Assembly (NCBI GenBank): GCA_025363815.1
Contig: JANYLB010000036.1
Span: 62,001-126,000 of the forward strand
Length of the DNA: 64,000 nt
Origin: Actinomycetes bacterium
GTDB lineage: Bacteria; Actinomycetota; Acidimicrobiia; IMCC26256; JANYLB01
Direction: 5' to 3'
Shown here: one piece after another, positions 57,336 to 64,000 of the stretch
Numbering within the stretch: position 1 is the first letter of the stretch
Layout of the letters: each line of letters begins with the position of its first letter
Notes under the pieces: generated by a model
What the model saw: only the letters and a program-made list of their open reading frames with translations
Database searches by the model: none
Told to the model about the DNA's origin: nothing
Translations under genes and position numbers: made by a program

Positions 57336-58655
57336 TCAGGTCCCCGCTTCCAGGCCGAGGGAAGCGGCCATGTGCGACCGGCGGACCTTCCCCGTGGCAC
57401 TTACCGGGATCGAATCCACGATCACCACCTGCTTCGGTCGCTTGTACGGGGCCACCCGCCCCGCGAGCCACTCGTCGACTTCAGCGGCATCGAGGTCGCC
57501 GACGACCGCGGCGCAGACACGTCGGCCCCATCGCTCGTCTTCGACGCCGAACACGACCGCATCCTGGACGCGGGGGTCGCCAAGCAGCACCCGTTCGATC
57601 TCGAGCGGGTACACGTTCATGCCCCCGGTGATGACGAGATCGTCGCGGCGTCCGTCGAGGAAGAGGTAGCCGTCGGCATCGATGCGCCCGATGTCGCCGA
57701 CGGTGAAGGCGTCACCGTCCCACGCGCTCGCGGTCTTTACCGGATCGCGCCAGTACTCGAAGCGGGCGTGACGGGGGACTTTGCACCAGATGGTCCCATC
57801 GATATCGCGTCGAAGCGTCCGACCGGGGCGGGCGCGGCCGACCGTTCCCGGCCGCGCGACCCACTCGTCGGGTGCGCAGACGGTTAACTGTCCTTCGGTC
57901 GAGCCGTAGAACTCCCAGACCGATCCGGCAGGGAACTCGTTGAGCGCTCGCTGCTTCACGAGGTCCGGACACGGCGCGCCGGCATGGGCGACTAGACGGA
58001 ACGAATCGAGCGGCGGCGGCTCCGCAAGGGCGAAGATCCGTTGGAGGTGGGCGGGCGCGACGAAAGTTGTCGTTGGGCGGTGGGTCGCGATGGCGTAGGC
58101 GACGGAAGCGGCATCGAAGGCTCCGGTGAGCACGAGAGATCCTCCGGCTGCCAGGGTGCCCGCGGCGAAGCGCAGCGGAGCCGAGTGATGGAGCGCGGAG
58201 GCGACGAGGTGCACGTCATCGGCGTCGAATCCCCAGACCGCGCGCTCCTCAGCGAGGAGCGCCGCCGCGTCGGCTTCGTCGAGCAATCCGCTCCACACGC
58301 CCTTGGGTGTGCCGGTCGTGCCGCTCGTATAGAGCATCGGGCGTGCAAGCGGCCACGGCGCGAGCTCGAACGGCGGTCCTGAGATCAGCTCGGGAAGATC
58401 ACCGTCGCGCAGGATCAGCGCCGGATCAGCGTCGGCGAGGAGCGCGCGCTGTTCGTCGGCGAGGAGACTCGGGTTGAGGAGCACGGGGACGATCCCGGTG
58501 CGCAGCGCCCCGAGTGCGGTGGCCAGGTAGGCGGGTGATCCCGGCGCGATGATCGCGACGCGATCACCGGAACCCAGCCCGCGTTGGGCGAGTGCGCCCG
58601 CCGCAGCCCGTTGATCGCGTTCGGACTCGTCGGCCGTGACGACGATGGCACTCAT
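57336..58655 (-). CDS. AMP-dependent acyl-CoA synthetase/ligase
   Basis: 439 residues from ATG 58655 (ATG 58667 is possible). Adenylation motif MLYTSGTTGTPKGVWS, EFYGSTEGQLTV, hinge GDIGRIDADGYLFLDGR, RRDDLVITGGMNVYP and the terminal catalytic lysine in SATGKVRRSH. It is about 60-100 residues shorter than most FadD proteins because of a reduced N-terminal region, yet all core motifs are present. Divergent from the sulfatase gene with 56 nt between starts. Carboxylate substrate unknown. Confidence 0.9.
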   Translation of the reverse strand: MSAIVVTADESERDQRAAAGALAQRGLGSGDRVAIIAPGSPAYLATALGALRTGIVPVLLNPSLLADEQRALLADADPALILRDGDLPELISGPPFELAPWPLARPMLYTSGTTGTPKGVWSGLLDEADAAALLAEERAVWGFDADDVHLVASALHHSAPLRFAAGTLAAGGSLVLTGAFDAASVAYAIATHRPTTTFVAPAHLQRIFALAEPPPLDSFRLVAHAGAPCPDLVKQRALNEFPAGSVWEFYGSTEGQLTVCAPDEWVARPGTVGRARPGRTLRRDIDGTIWCKVPRHARFEYWRDPVKTASAWDGDAFTVGDIGRIDADGYLFLDGRRDDLVITGGMNVYPLEIERVLLGDPRVQDAVVFGVEDERWGRRVCAAVVGDLDAAEVDEWLAGRVAPYKRPKQVVIVDSIPVSATGKVRRSHMAASLGLEAGT

Positions 58656-58711
58656 TGCTCCAATCATTGCTTGCCGGTCATCCCGGCGCCCCTTCCGGGT
58701 ACCGTGACCCC

Positions 58712-60106
58712 GTGTCGAGCGACAGCAGCAGGCCGAACATCGTGCTGATCCTCGCCGACGATATGGGCTACGGAGATTTCGGGTTCTGCAACGACGGTCG
58801 CTCGCAAACCCCCGCGATCGATCATCTAGCCGGCGAAGGCACCTGTCTTGCTCAGCACTACTCGGCGTCACCGGTCTGCGCCCCTGCCCGGGCGTCGATC
58901 CTGACCGGCCGATATCCCCACCGAACCGGCGCGATCGACACATTGGAGGGCCGGGGCCTTGACCGCATCGGTTTGGGCGAGCGGACGATCGCCGACCTCC
59001 TGGGTGCCGGCGGCTATGCGACGGGTTTGGTGGGGAAGTGGCACAACGGCGCGCTCGACGAGCGCTTCCACCCGACGCGGCGCGGCTTCGACGAGTTCGC
59101 GGGCTTCATCGGCGGATGGCAGCGCTACTGGGACTGGACCATCGAACGCGAAGGCGCCCGACTAGAGGCCGACGGCCGGTATCTCACCGACGTGCTCACC
59201 GATGAGGCCGTGGCGTTCCTCGGCCGTCATCGCCGCGAGCCGTTCTTTCTCCATCTCGCCTACAGCGCTCCGCACTTCCCGCTCGAGGCCCCCGATGCCG
59301 ACATCGAGGTGTTCCTCGACGCCGATAGGTTCACGACCGCGGTGAGTCGGATCTACGCCATGGTCCGGTCGATGGACCGGGGGATCGGCGTGGTCCTCGA
59401 CGCGCTCGACCGGCTCGGTCTCGCCGAGAACACTCTCGTGCTCGTATCGAGCGACAACGGCCCGCAGATGACGGGCGAGGGTGACGAGTCCACGGTGCGT
59501 TTCAACTGTCAGTACCGCGGGGCAAAGGGTCTCGTGTCTGAGGGCGGGATCCGACTCCCGATGATCCTGAGTTGGCCGGCTGGTCTGCCCGGTCGTCGTG
59601 AGATCGACGACCTCGTTCACTTCACCGACTGGCTGCCGACGTTGCTGAGCGCCGCAGGGGTGACGGTGCCACCCGAGCTCGGCCTCGACGGGGTGAACGT
59701 GCTGCCGCTGCTCCAAGGGGTCCCGATGGAGGTGCCTCCGGTCCGGTTCTGGCAGTGGAACCGCTACACCCCGGTCGGGAAGAGCAACGCGGCAATGCGC
59801 GACGGCCCCTGGAAGCTGGTCCGACCCGCGATCGCGGCGACGATGGAGGTCGCGCCCGGTGATCTCATGATCGACGCCGCGCTAAAGATCACCCCCGGCG
59901 CGTTCACCGAGATAAGCACCGGTCCCGAACCGGAGCGCGATGTCTCGGTGGCCGGCCCGGCGCAGCTCTTCGACCTGGCGAACGACCCATTCGAAGAGAA
60001 CGATCTCGGCGCAGCTGAGCCCGCCCGCGTCGTCCGCATGACGACGGAGCTCGAGGCGTGGTTCGCATCGGTCGAGGCCGACCGGTCGCGCGCCGTGGTC
60101 GGCTGA
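58712..60106 (+). CDS. Sulfatase (type I, formylglycine-dependent)
   Basis: 464 residues from GTG 58712 (upstream residues are outside the fold). NIVLILADDMGYGDFG gives the first metal-binding Asp pair (16-17). The formylglycine motif CAPARASILTGR has Cys56-x-Pro-x-Arg60, and GKWHNG plus SSDNGPQ supply further active-site residues. Cytoplasmic, since no signal peptide is apparent. It hydrolyses a sulfate ester after maturation by a formylglycine-generating enzyme that is not in the window. Close to a sulfotransferase. Confidence 0.9.
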   Translation: MSSDSSRPNIVLILADDMGYGDFGFCNDGRSQTPAIDHLAGEGTCLAQHYSASPVCAPARASILTGRYPHRTGAIDTLEGRGLDRIGLGERTIADLLGAGGYATGLVGKWHNGALDERFHPTRRGFDEFAGFIGGWQRYWDWTIEREGARLEADGRYLTDVLTDEAVAFLGRHRREPFFLHLAYSAPHFPLEAPDADIEVFLDADRFTTAVSRIYAMVRSMDRGIGVVLDALDRLGLAENTLVLVSSDNGPQMTGEGDESTVRFNCQYRGAKGLVSEGGIRLPMILSWPAGLPGRREIDDLVHFTDWLPTLLSAAGVTVPPELGLDGVNVLPLLQGVPMEVPPVRFWQWNRYTPVGKSNAAMRDGPWKLVRPAIAATMEVAPGDLMIDAALKITPGAFTEISTGPEPERDVSVAGPAQLFDLANDPFEENDLGAAEPARVVRMTTELEAWFASVEADRSRAVVG

Positions 60107-61152: not shown

Positions 61153-62310
61153 TCAGGCCTCGGCGCCGTCGACGGCCGGATTGCCCGGCTTCGGACGCCC
61201 CGCGCCCCGCTTCTGCTCCAGGTGCACGATGCTGAGCGTGGCGAGGTCGTCGTCGCTGATGCGAATGGCATCGGGCGGGTCAGCACCATCGCGCGCTCGG
61301 ATGAAGTTCTTGTCGTTGCGCAGGTAAGGCCGGTAGAAGTCGAGTGCGTGGTCGAGCAGCCTGTCGTACTCGCCGAGGAGCTCGCGATCTTCGACGAGAT
61401 CGAGACGCAACCGGTCGATTGCACTCTCTGGTCCGACGCGCGCCCGCTCGATGGTGATCGGGAACGGGTTGGTGAGATGGAAGTAGCGCCCGTCGGCTCG
61501 GGCGTCGTCGGCCAGCGTGACCGCTTCCTCCACCAACACATCTATGGGTACGAGGTTGAGCGATGAATTCGGCTCCACGAGGAGCTTGACCCGGTGAGAA
61601 TCCAGGTAGCCGACCTGCTTGCGCTCCACCACCCGACAGAACCGCTCCAACCCGGCCAGGAAGCCGTAGTACCCGCTGTCAGAGCTCGAACGGTAGGTGG
61701 AGAGGGTTCCGACCACGATCGACGGACGCATGATGCGAACCCGAGCGAAGCGAGTGGCGTTCGCGACAACGACGTCTTCGCCCTGTCGCTTCGACGCCTC
61801 GTACCAGTTGTTCGGCTCGAACTCCGGGTCGTACGGCTCCTCGTGCACATCACCGACCTTGGCCCCGGCGACGTAGGCGGTGCTGATGTGGTTGAGCTCC
61901 GGAATGCCGAGTCCGGCGACGGTTTCGACGAGATTGGTAGTGCCACCGACGTTCGTGGCGACGATCTCGCCCTTGTGCTTGTCCTCGTAACGCAGCGACG
62001 CGGCGCTGTGCCAGACCTCGTCGGGCTGATTCGACTCGAGTTGGCTCCGATCCTCAGGCGTGAGTCCGAGACCCGGCGCTCCGATGTCGCCGGCCAGAGG
62101 CACGAGGCGATGGAGCTGTTCGTCGAGCCCGCCCTCGATCCCGGCGGCGTCGGCCGCGGCCCGCACCGCGGCGTGGAGCCGGGCGGTGATATCGCCCCGA
62201 GGTCGCACGAGGCAGTAGACGCGCTCGCGATCCGAGCGCAGCAGCTCGACCGCCAGACTGCTGCCGAGGAACCCCGTGGCGCCCGTGAGCAGTGCGATGC
62301 GTGAGGCCAT
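61153..62310 (-). CDS. Fatty acyl-CoA/thioester reductase-like extended SDR (NAD_binding_4)
   Basis: 385 residues. Rossmann loop LLTGATGFLGSSLA, YCLVRPRGD, WHSAASLRYEDKHKGEI, HISTAYVAGAKVG with the catalytic Ser/Thr, and NNWYEASKRQGEDVV with Tyr and Lys. These are the NAD_binding_4 features of fatty acyl-CoA reductases and carboxylic-acid reductase R domains. The C-terminal ALDFYRPYLRNDKNF recalls the end of stand-alone reductases. It may reduce acyl-CoA to fatty alcohol. Divergent from the acyltransferase/ADPS fusion with 111 nt between starts, suggesting a shared pathway. Confidence 0.78.
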   Translation of the reverse strand: MASRIALLTGATGFLGSSLAVELLRSDRERVYCLVRPRGDITARLHAAVRAAADAAGIEGGLDEQLHRLVPLAGDIGAPGLGLTPEDRSQLESNQPDEVWHSAASLRYEDKHKGEIVATNVGGTTNLVETVAGLGIPELNHISTAYVAGAKVGDVHEEPYDPEFEPNNWYEASKRQGEDVVVANATRFARVRIMRPSIVVGTLSTYRSSSDSGYYGFLAGLERFCRVVERKQVGYLDSHRVKLLVEPNSSLNLVPIDVLVEEAVTLADDARADGRYFHLTNPFPITIERARVGPESAIDRLRLDLVEDRELLGEYDRLLDHALDFYRPYLRNDKNFIRARDGADPPDAIRISDDDLATLSIVHLEQKRGAGRPKPGNPAVDGAEA

Positions 62311-62421
62311 TGGTCACCAGTCGGGGGGTCGGAAGCCCACGAACCTACCGCCGGACCGTGGCGAGCCCCCCATTCCGAGGGTGCTGGCGGTGTCTTGCCC
62401 GGGCATGGAAGCCTGTCTCCG
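62311..62421. promoter_or_regulatory. Shared divergent promoter region of the putative ether-lipid genes
   Basis: 111 nt separate the start codons of the reductase (minus) and the fusion gene (plus). Both promoters must lie here; I see no clear -35/-10 pair or palindrome. The purine stretch agggtgctgg and short hairpins are not convincing operators. Confidence 0.4.
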
Positions 62422-64000
62422 ATGACACAAGGCGCTGACGAGGAAGGAAATCGATCAGAGACGGCGGATCGGCCCTCCATTCCCCAGCGAGCGGTAGCCA
62501 TTGGGTTCGAGGTCTTCGCCCGCGCCACCTTCCGTACCCACATCACTCTCGCCGTGCGAGGGCGGGAGAAGCTCCCGTCCGGCGGGTTGGTAGTGGTGAG
62601 CAATCATTCGTCACATCTCGATGCCATCGTCTTGATGCATGTTTGCGGCGGGCCGTTCCGGCGTTTTCACCTGGCAGCGGCGGGCGACTACTTCTTCGGG
62701 TCGGCGATGGCCGAGGCGGCCGGGCGTAAGCCGTCACGGTTCGGCGCGCTGTTGCGTACCGCGCTTCGGCTCGAGCCGATGCCGGTCCGACAACTGGGCG
62801 AGACGCCGGAACGACGAGGCGCTCGTCAACGGGCGTTTGCGAGCCTCGCGGCCTCGTGTCGGGGAGGCGACGTCGTGGTGTTCTTCCCCGAGGGAGGCCG
62901 TTCGCCCGACGGCTTGATCCGACGGTTCCGCAACGGGATCGACGAGCTGAGCGCGCAGTTCGACGGCCCGATCGTGCCCATGCACATTGATGGCGCGTAC
63001 GCGTTGTGGCCCAAGGGCAAACGGTGGTCGCGCAGGGGCACGGTGACCGTGACGATCGGCGATCCGATCATCCCTGGCGCGAACGTGGCCGACGTCGACG
63101 GCGTGAAGCGACCACGATTGGCGAAGAGGCTCGAAGCAGAGGTGCGCAGACTGGCAGGCGACCCGACCGGTGAGGAGCAATCGATGGTGCAGCACATGAA
63201 GTGGTGGGGTTGGGGCGACGAGCAGGTGATGTTCACCCACGAGGACAAGCCCGACCTCGCGCCGTTCGTGCGCGAGAAGCTCGGGATCGATCTCGACGGT
63301 CCGAGAGAACAGGTCATCGACTTCGAAGAGCTCTCGATCGATGCTCCGGTCGTCAACGAGGTGTTCAGCGCGGCGCTCGCGAGCGTGTTGCGTGCCGAAC
63401 AGATCACCTCCGATCCGATGGAACGGTTGGTGCACACCTACGGCAAGAGCGTGCGCGATCTCCTGCGCGTTCGTCGTGGCGATCTCGGTCGGTTGCCCGA
63501 CGTGATTGTCTACCCCGGCACCGAAGACGACGTAGTCGCGATCATGTCGACGGCATTGGCCTACGACGTCGTCGTCATTCCGTTCGGCGGTGGCACCAAC
63601 ATCTCCGAGAGTCTCGAGCCGCCCCGCGACGAGCAACGATTCGTTCTCTCGGTCGACATGCGGAAGATGGAAGCCGTGATCGAGATCGATGACGTCGCGC
63701 GAACGGCGCGGGTGCAGGCGGGGGTCCTCGGACCGCGGCTTGAAGAGCAGCTGAACGCGAAGGGCTGGACCCTCGGACACTTCCCGGACAGCTTCACCTA
63801 CTCGACGCTAGGTGGGTGGATCGCGACCCGTTCGTCGGGAATGCAGTCCGACAAGTACGGCGACATCGCCGATATCACTCAGGCGCTGCGCGCGGTAACG
63901 CCCGCCGGCGTGCTCGTGACCCGGGCCGTGCCGTCAAAGTCGACTGGTCCCGACGTCAACCAGATGTTGCTCGGCAGCGAAGGACGCCTGGGGATCATCA
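62422..64000 (+). CDS. Fusion: PlsC-type acyltransferase + alkyl-dihydroxyacetonephosphate synthase (3' truncated)
   Basis: One uninterrupted frame from ATG 62422 to the window end (526 codons). Residues about 25-245 are a PlsC/GNPAT-type acyltransferase: NHSSHLDA with HX4D at His62-Asp67, FFPEGGRSPDG near 154-164, and PIVPMHIDGAY. From about residue 255 (MVQHMKWWGWGDEQVMF) begins an alkyl-DHAP synthase: ERLVHTYGKSVRDLLRVRRG, a PP-loop FAD domain LPDVIVYPGTEDDVVAI with IPFGGGTNISE, and GHFPDSFTYSTLGGWIATRS. I checked the linker region 63100-63200 for stops and found none. It probably makes acyl-DHAP and then exchanges the acyl for an alkyl group. Confidence 0.85.
   Translation, partial: MTQGADEEGNRSETADRPSIPQRAVAIGFEVFARATFRTHITLAVRGREKLPSGGLVVVSNHSSHLDAIVLMHVCGGPFRRFHLAAAGDYFFGSAMAEAAGRKPSRFGALLRTALRLEPMPVRQLGETPERRGARQRAFASLAASCRGGDVVVFFPEGGRSPDGLIRRFRNGIDELSAQFDGPIVPMHIDGAYALWPKGKRWSRRGTVTVTIGDPIIPGANVADVDGVKRPRLAKRLEAEVRRLAGDPTGEEQSMVQHMKWWGWGDEQVMFTHEDKPDLAPFVREKLGIDLDGPREQVIDFEELSIDAPVVNEVFSAALASVLRAEQITSDPMERLVHTYGKSVRDLLRVRRGDLGRLPDVIVYPGTEDDVVAIMSTALAYDVVVIPFGGGTNISESLEPPRDEQRFVLSVDMRKMEAVIEIDDVARTARVQAGVLGPRLEEQLNAKGWTLGHFPDSFTYSTLGGWIATRSSGMQSDKYGDIADITQALRAVTPAGVLVTRAVPSKSTGPDVNQMLLGSEGRLGII

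What the first reader, a model, noticed from the sequence alone, without database searches (positions are those of the whole stretch)
61153..64000. Putative bacterial ether-lipid module: fused DHAP acyltransferase + alkyl-DHAP synthase divergent from a fatty acyl reductase
The plus-strand frame at 62422 has no stop between a complete PlsC-type acyltransferase (HX4D, EGGRS) and an AGPS domain with its hallmark MKWWGWG entry and GHFPDSFTYSTLGGW FAD/substrate block. In animals acyl-DHAP is made by GNPAT and converted to alkyl-DHAP by AGPS with a fatty alcohol from FAR1. Here both enzymes would be one polypeptide, and a NAD_binding_4 reductase able to supply the alcohol is divergently transcribed 111 nt away. 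The direct channelling this implies is not something I know from described bacterial ether-lipid systems. The acyl acceptor (DHAP versus another) is inferred.
Basis: partly seen in the sequence, partly recalled or inferred. Interest (0 to 1): 0.82.

Follow-up and report, generated by a model that had tools for sequence, protein, structure and literature searches.

The report
Fused acyltransferase–alkyl-DHAP synthase, ether-lipid locus
An uncultured actinobacterium encodes, in one open reading frame, the two enzymes that in animals act one after the other to start ether-lipid synthesis, next to the reductase that could supply the fatty alcohol; most relatives keep the same enzymes as separate neighbouring genes, and several relatives are known to make plasmalogens.

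Summary
The gene is complete beyond the window edge: 808 aa, one frame, PlsC-type acyltransferase (AT) plus a full alkylglycerone-phosphate synthase (AGPS) domain, closest solved relative Dictyostelium AGPS (E 6e-130), active-site residues kept. It is not an assembly error: an independent Microthrixaceae MAG (L072; AT 62%, AGPS 77%) has the same fusion and the same divergent reductase. In 80 actinobacterial loci of this AGPS clade, 52 have an AT just upstream as a separate co-directional gene (often ATGA/GTGA overlap), 5 have it divergent, 1 is fused. The fused AT falls with these AGPS-linked ATs, apart from ordinary PlsC paralogues. The reductase beside AGPS is by far the strongest NAD_binding_4 hit in its genome. 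Relatives with unfused genes (Subtercola, Agreia) and Kineococcus contain dimethylacetals, the mark of plasmalogens. So an ether-lipid module is well supported; DHAP as acceptor and alcohol as reductase product remain inferred. Channelling is not shown: the linker is predicted disordered, and a strong Shine-Dalgarno before an in-frame ATG at the AGPS start, kept in L072 and matching the AGPS start of unfused close relatives, suggests free AGPS is also made. New fusion of known enzymes in a known kind of pathway.

The parts
62422..64000 (+). fused AT-AGPS gene (ATG at 62422; runs past the window to 64845, stop to 64848; 808 aa)
62551..62988 (+). PlsC-type acyltransferase domain (PF01553, residues 44-189)
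   Evidence: tree with AGPS-linked acyltransferases
63172..63177 (+). internal Shine-Dalgarno GAGGAG, 6 nt before the AGPS ATG
   Evidence: only 2.9% of internal in-frame ATGs have as strong a site
63184..64000 (+). AGPS part from in-frame ATG (residue 255): possible start of free AGPS; continues to 64845
63496..63921 (+). FAD_binding_4 domain (residues 359-500)
61153..62310 (-). divergent NAD_binding_4 (fatty acyl / thioester reductase-type) gene, 385 aa
   Evidence: same position in L072 (67% identity), L074 and L092
60120..61025 (-). short-chain dehydrogenase downstream of the reductase; possible but untested alkyl-DHAP reductase
   Evidence: L072 has a different SDR at the same place

Best explanation
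The locus makes the first dedicated intermediates of glycerol ether lipids. The N-terminal PlsC-type domain acylates DHAP (inferred), the C-terminal AGPS domain swaps the acyl group for a fatty alcohol using its FAD (by homology), and the divergent NAD_binding_4 reductase supplies that alcohol from acyl-CoA or acyl-ACP (inferred). The two enzymes are usually separate, linked genes; in this lineage the AT frame runs into AGPS without a stop. The AGPS gene's own ribosome-binding site and ATG remain inside the fused frame, so the cell probably makes both the bifunctional protein and free AGPS (inferred). The fusion more likely fixes co-production and proximity than a rigid channel. Shown here: architecture, conservation, neighbourhood, active-site residues, the internal site. 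Inferred: substrates, products, the dual output.
For: Full AGPS domain, 2uuu E 6e-130 and 4bby E 1.4e-92, active-site residues conserved. Same fusion plus divergent reductase in an independent genome, dN/dS about 0.24 over AT and 0.18 over AGPS between the two. AT beside AGPS in 52 co-directional and 5 divergent of 80 loci; AGPS-linked and fused ATs in one supported group (99/94) apart from 17 other PlsC rows, including the own genome's three. In own, L072 and Subtercola genomes the AGPS-adjacent reductase is the top NAD_binding_4 hit, 130-154 bits against at most 53 for the next. Own genome has PlsY twice and no PlsB/GNPAT C-terminal domain, so this AT is not needed for ordinary G3P acylation and no other DHAP acyltransferase of that type is present. 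All listed Subtercola species carry dimethylacetals, Agreia low amounts (PMC5945732), Kineococcus rubinsiae too (PMC7472656). Internal SD: window -8.5 kcal (2.9% of internal ATGs as strong), L072 AAGGAGG -11.4 (0.5%); unfused close relatives L092 and L074 start AGPS there with AGGAGG.
Against: No lipid data for this organism. Acceptor specificity of PlsC-type domains cannot be read from sequence. The reductase lacks the FAR C-terminal domain, and its nearest solved relative is a thioester reductase (MxaA), so it might stop at the aldehyde. No activity or protein size is known. Frankia, Kineococcus and L092 have this AGPS without an AT nearby. The linker is predicted disordered.
Confidence: 0.72

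Rival explanations
1. The AT domain is a 1-alkyl/1-acyl-G3P sn-2 acyltransferase (AGPAT) of the same pathway, not a DHAP acyltransferase; acyl-DHAP comes from another enzyme.
For: PlsC-type (PF01553), matching AGP_acyltrn only weakly; in eukaryotes and M. xanthus the DHAP acyltransferase is GNPAT-like (PMC9131029). Other PlsC genes of the genome might use DHAP.
Against: The first substrate of AGPS is acyl-DHAP and no GNPAT-type GPAT_C domain is found in the genome; the AT is tied to AGPS itself, often by overlapping codons.
Confidence: 0.3
2. Two genes in one frame: AGPS is translated mainly from its own internal start and the fusion is a minor read-on product without functional meaning.
For: Strong internal SD and ATG in both fused genomes; the same site is the plain AGPS start in L092 and L074; the AT start has no clear SD; linker disordered.
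Against: The AT has no stop codon of its own in two genomes about 62% identical in that domain; every ribosome that starts at the AT must make the fusion.
Confidence: 0.3
3. The AGPS-like domain is another FAD-dependent oxidoreductase of the FAD-oxidase_C group (e.g. glycolate or lactate oxidase type), not an ether synthase.
For: Same Pfam domains; the GlcD model matches at 131 bits.
Against: GlcD's cut-off is 567.9 bits; AGPS structures match at 314-438 bits over the whole domain with HHH, Arg and Tyr conserved; the neighbourhood is lipid genes.
Confidence: 0.04
4. The fusion is an assembly or sequencing error in the window.
For: The genome is a fragmented draft of 62 contigs.
Against: Independent MAG L072 has the same single frame with a different linker; the codon-position pattern is that of coding sequence through the linker.
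Confidence: 0.02

Closest known systems
Myxococcus xanthus MXAN_1676-1675-1674 (AGPS; FAR-GNPAT fusion; epimerase), PMC9131029
   Same: AGPS, reductase and acyltransferase encoded together in a bacterium; two of the three activities in one polypeptide
   Different: There reductase and GNPAT-like AT are fused and AGPS is separate; here a PlsC-type AT is fused to AGPS, and the reductase is separate and divergent
FARAT of Dictyostelium and Tetrahymena, PMC7375469
   Same: Fusion of two enzymes of the first ether-lipid steps; the window AGPS is closest to Dictyostelium AGPS among solved structures
   Different: FARAT joins reductase and AT, with AGPS a separate protein
Mammalian GNPAT-AGPS complex with FAR1
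   Same: Same proposed reaction order; GNPAT and AGPS act as a complex (PMC9131029)
   Different: Separate peroxisomal proteins; GNPAT is of the GPAT/PlsB type (own knowledge)
Actinobacterial SDR-AT-AGPS operons with reductase-HAD gene
   Same: Same AGPS clade, AT family and linked reductase
   Different: AT and AGPS are separate genes; an SDR and two ferritin-like proteins are added

Membership tests
Alkylglycerone-phosphate synthase (AGPS) | FAD_binding_4 plus FAD-oxidase_C, full-length match to solved AGPS | tested here: met
Alkylglycerone-phosphate synthase (AGPS) | HHH motif and the Arg and Tyr mutated in 4bc7 and 4bca | tested here: met
   Residues R571, Y727, H764-H766 align
Alkylglycerone-phosphate synthase (AGPS) | Alkyl-DHAP synthase activity | not testable with these tools
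   needs assay
PlsC-type acyltransferase (PF01553) | HX4D and EGxRS motifs, Pfam score over cut-off | tested here: met
   58.5 bits against 23
GNPAT (DHAP acyltransferase) | GPAT_C (PF19277) / PlsB-type architecture | tested here: not met
   Not in the protein's Pfam hits nor elsewhere in the genome (E. coli control rang)
GNPAT (DHAP acyltransferase) | DHAP as acceptor | not testable with these tools
   needs assay
Fatty acyl reductase FAR1-type | NAD_binding_4 domain | tested here: met
   132 bits against 20.1
Fatty acyl reductase FAR1-type | C-terminal Sterile domain (PF03015) | tested here: not met
   absent in the 385-aa protein; weak in the Subtercola counterpart
M. xanthus-type AGPS / FAR-GNPAT cluster | FAR and AT on one polypeptide | tested here: not met
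   met instead in G023 (L068)
Aerobic plasmalogen pathway | CarF/PEDS1 desaturase (PF10520) in the genome | tested here: inconclusive
   No hit in 13 genomes, but no control genome rang

The most novel reading that the evidence does not exclude
A nested, two-product gene: one frame yields a bifunctional DHAP acyltransferase/alkyl-DHAP synthase and, from a retained internal ribosome-binding site, free AGPS. It is a derived form of a so far undescribed actinobacterial aerobic ether-lipid/plasmalogen gene cluster that works without CarF.
Probability: 0.3. Interest if true: 0.68.

Novelty: new variant of a known kind. Interest (0 to 1): 0.5.

Why it matters
Plasmalogen markers have long been reported in aerobic actinobacteria such as Subtercola, with no pathway that I found described for them. 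The fused gene ties an acyltransferase to AGPS in the most direct way and, with the conserved neighbourhood, points to the gene set in cultivable relatives. It also shows a third way, besides FAR-AT fusions and separate genes, in which evolution has joined the first ether-lipid enzymes.

Tried and rejected
First pattern scan of genome contigs with the single protein found nothing; repeated with an alignment. The 'query 42-807' matches looked like many fusions but are joined pieces of adjacent genes; only L072 is a true single frame. Acidimicrobiia AGPS homologues are about 35% identical, standalone where checked and of other clades. Rfam: nothing in 20 kb. CarF search empty without a control. 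Structure of the fusion is of moderate quality (pLDDT 68) and gives no domain packing to interpret. No paper describing an AT-AGPS fusion was found in the searches made; the library holds open-licence papers only.

Full report
OBSERVATION. The window lies on contig C62 of a 2.68-Mb actinobacterial genome (89% complete, 62 contigs). The plus-strand frame with ATG at window 62422 stays open through the window end and terminates 845 bases beyond it; the protein has 808 residues. Pfam finds one acyltransferase domain (residues 44-189) and both AGPS-type FAD domains (359-500 and 537-806), all far over their cut-offs. Against solved structures the C-terminal part matches Dictyostelium AGPS over its whole length (438 bits, E 6e-130) and guinea-pig AGPS (314 bits); the SHHHG motif and the residues at the positions changed in PDB 4bc7 (Arg to His) and 4bca (Tyr to Phe) are conserved. 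The minus-strand gene 61153-62310 has a NAD_binding_4 domain (132 bits).

THE FUSION IS REAL BUT RARE. A collection-wide scan gave 80 loci of the same AGPS clade. One of them, L072 from an independently assembled Microthrixaceae MAG, has AT and AGPS in one frame (AGPS 77%, AT about 62% identical) and the same divergent reductase (67%). Between the two, substitutions concentrate at third codon positions in AT, linker and AGPS, and dN/dS is about 0.24, 0.25 and 0.18 (the linker has only 27 codons and its dS is near saturation). In the other loci the genes are separate: 52 have an AT co-directional within 1.7 kb upstream (25 groups in the listing, one unnamed), 5 Solirubrobacterales have it as divergent neighbour, 15 have none within 2 kb, 7 contigs are too short. 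Many of the separate pairs overlap by ATGA or GTGA, in a different frame. On the AGPS tree the 24 sampled adjacent-AT loci form one clade, and the two fused ones are sister to L074 and L092; these two have the divergent reductase and no AT was seen beside AGPS, though L074's contig is too short upstream to say.

THE ACYLTRANSFERASE BELONGS TO AGPS. In a tree of 53 acyltransferase domains the fused ATs, the operon ATs and the divergent-neighbour ATs fall in one supported group (99/94) that excludes 17 other PlsC paralogues, among them the three of the window's own genome. Six unlinked ATs, from Frankia, Kribbella, Microlunatus, Subtercola and the genomes of L077 and L092, also fall in it, and some may be partners in trans. 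The position of the fused pair within the group is unsure: its branch is long. The own genome has two PlsY genes and no GPAT_C domain, so ordinary glycerol-3-phosphate acylation is covered and no PlsB/GNPAT-type enzyme was found to make acyl-DHAP.

THE REDUCTASE BELONGS TOO. It sits divergently beside the fused gene in both fused genomes and beside AGPS in L092 and L074. In the own genome, the L072 genome and Subtercola vilae, the NAD_binding_4 protein of the AGPS locus is by far the best hit of its genome (132.7, 129.6 and 154.1 bits; next best 53 or less). It lacks the FAR C-terminal domain, and the nearest solved chain is the thioester reductase MxaA, so alcohol as product is inferred. In Microbacteriaceae, Jiangellaceae and Streptomycetaceae the locus reads SDR-AT-AGPS with a reductase fused to a HAD phosphatase domain, mostly divergent.

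LIPID EVIDENCE FROM RELATIVES. Four Subtercola species contain iso/anteiso dimethylacetals, together up to more than a quarter of the profile, and Agreia low amounts (PMC5945732); Kineococcus rubinsiae contains dimethylacetals read as plasmalogens (PMC7472656). All three genera carry this AGPS clade. This is an association in relatives with unfused genes, not proof for this organism. The known anaerobic plasmalogen route (plsA/plsR, PMC9702350) was not tested here.

HOW IT PROBABLY WORKS. AT acylates DHAP; AGPS replaces the acyl group with a fatty alcohol; the reductase provides the alcohol; an SDR makes alkyl-G3P (an SDR is next to the acyl reductase in both fused genomes, but not visibly the same one). 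Only architecture, conservation and active-site residues are shown; each substrate is inferred.

CHANNELLING OR TWO PRODUCTS? Residues 244-271 between the domains are predicted disordered (pLDDT below 50; whole model 68). Six nt before an in-frame ATG at the exact AGPS start lies GAGGAG in the window, and AAGGAGG lies before the AGPS ATG in L072. Of 442 internal in-frame ATGs in long frames, 2.9% and 0.5% have duplex energies as strong (many of those frames are mechanical ORFs, so the background is rough). The unfused relatives L092 and L074 begin AGPS at the same place behind AGGAGG. The simplest reading is that AGPS kept its own start inside the fused frame, so free AGPS may be made beside the fusion. 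No protein data exist.

COMPARISON. M. xanthus has AGPS beside a FAR-GNPAT fusion (PMC9131029) and Dictyostelium and Tetrahymena have FARAT (PMC7375469). G023, of the window's order, has the M. xanthus-like arrangement (L068). An AT-AGPS fusion was not found described in the papers searched. It is a new combination of known enzymes: a new variant of a known kind.

Noticed in passing
L103 6043-6930 (-) and 431-1210 (-); found in about 30 of the 80 loci: Two paralogous ~290-aa proteins lie near the reductase-HAD gene in the Subtercola-type cluster. Weak Pfam hits to Rubrerythrin, FA_desaturase_2 and COQ7, and ferritin-like folds (R2-like oxidase, stearoyl-ACP desaturase) as best structural matches, though none at E <= 0.001. 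Candidate for a missing vinyl-ether desaturase; not found in the window's genome or in Kineococcus rubinsiae.
   Followed up: partly
L068 9077-14624 (genome G023, same order): AGPS of the animal-like clade followed by a reductase-acyltransferase fusion (1028-aa frame) and an epimerase: the same order as M. xanthus MXAN_1676-1674.
   Followed up: partly
L103 3650-6046 (-) and relatives: NAD_binding_4 reductase fused to a C-terminal HAD phosphatase domain, linked to AT-AGPS in many actinomycetes.
   Followed up: no
Genomes of L083 (Frankia QA3, AT at L156) and L092 (AT at L161): AGPS without a neighbouring AT, but an AT elsewhere in the genome falls in the AGPS-linked AT group: possible partner in trans.
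   Followed up: partly
window 57336-58943 (-): Acyl-CoA synthetase-like gene (AMP-binding) about 2 kb from the reductase gene; could supply acyl-CoA, no conservation of the link tested.
   Followed up: no
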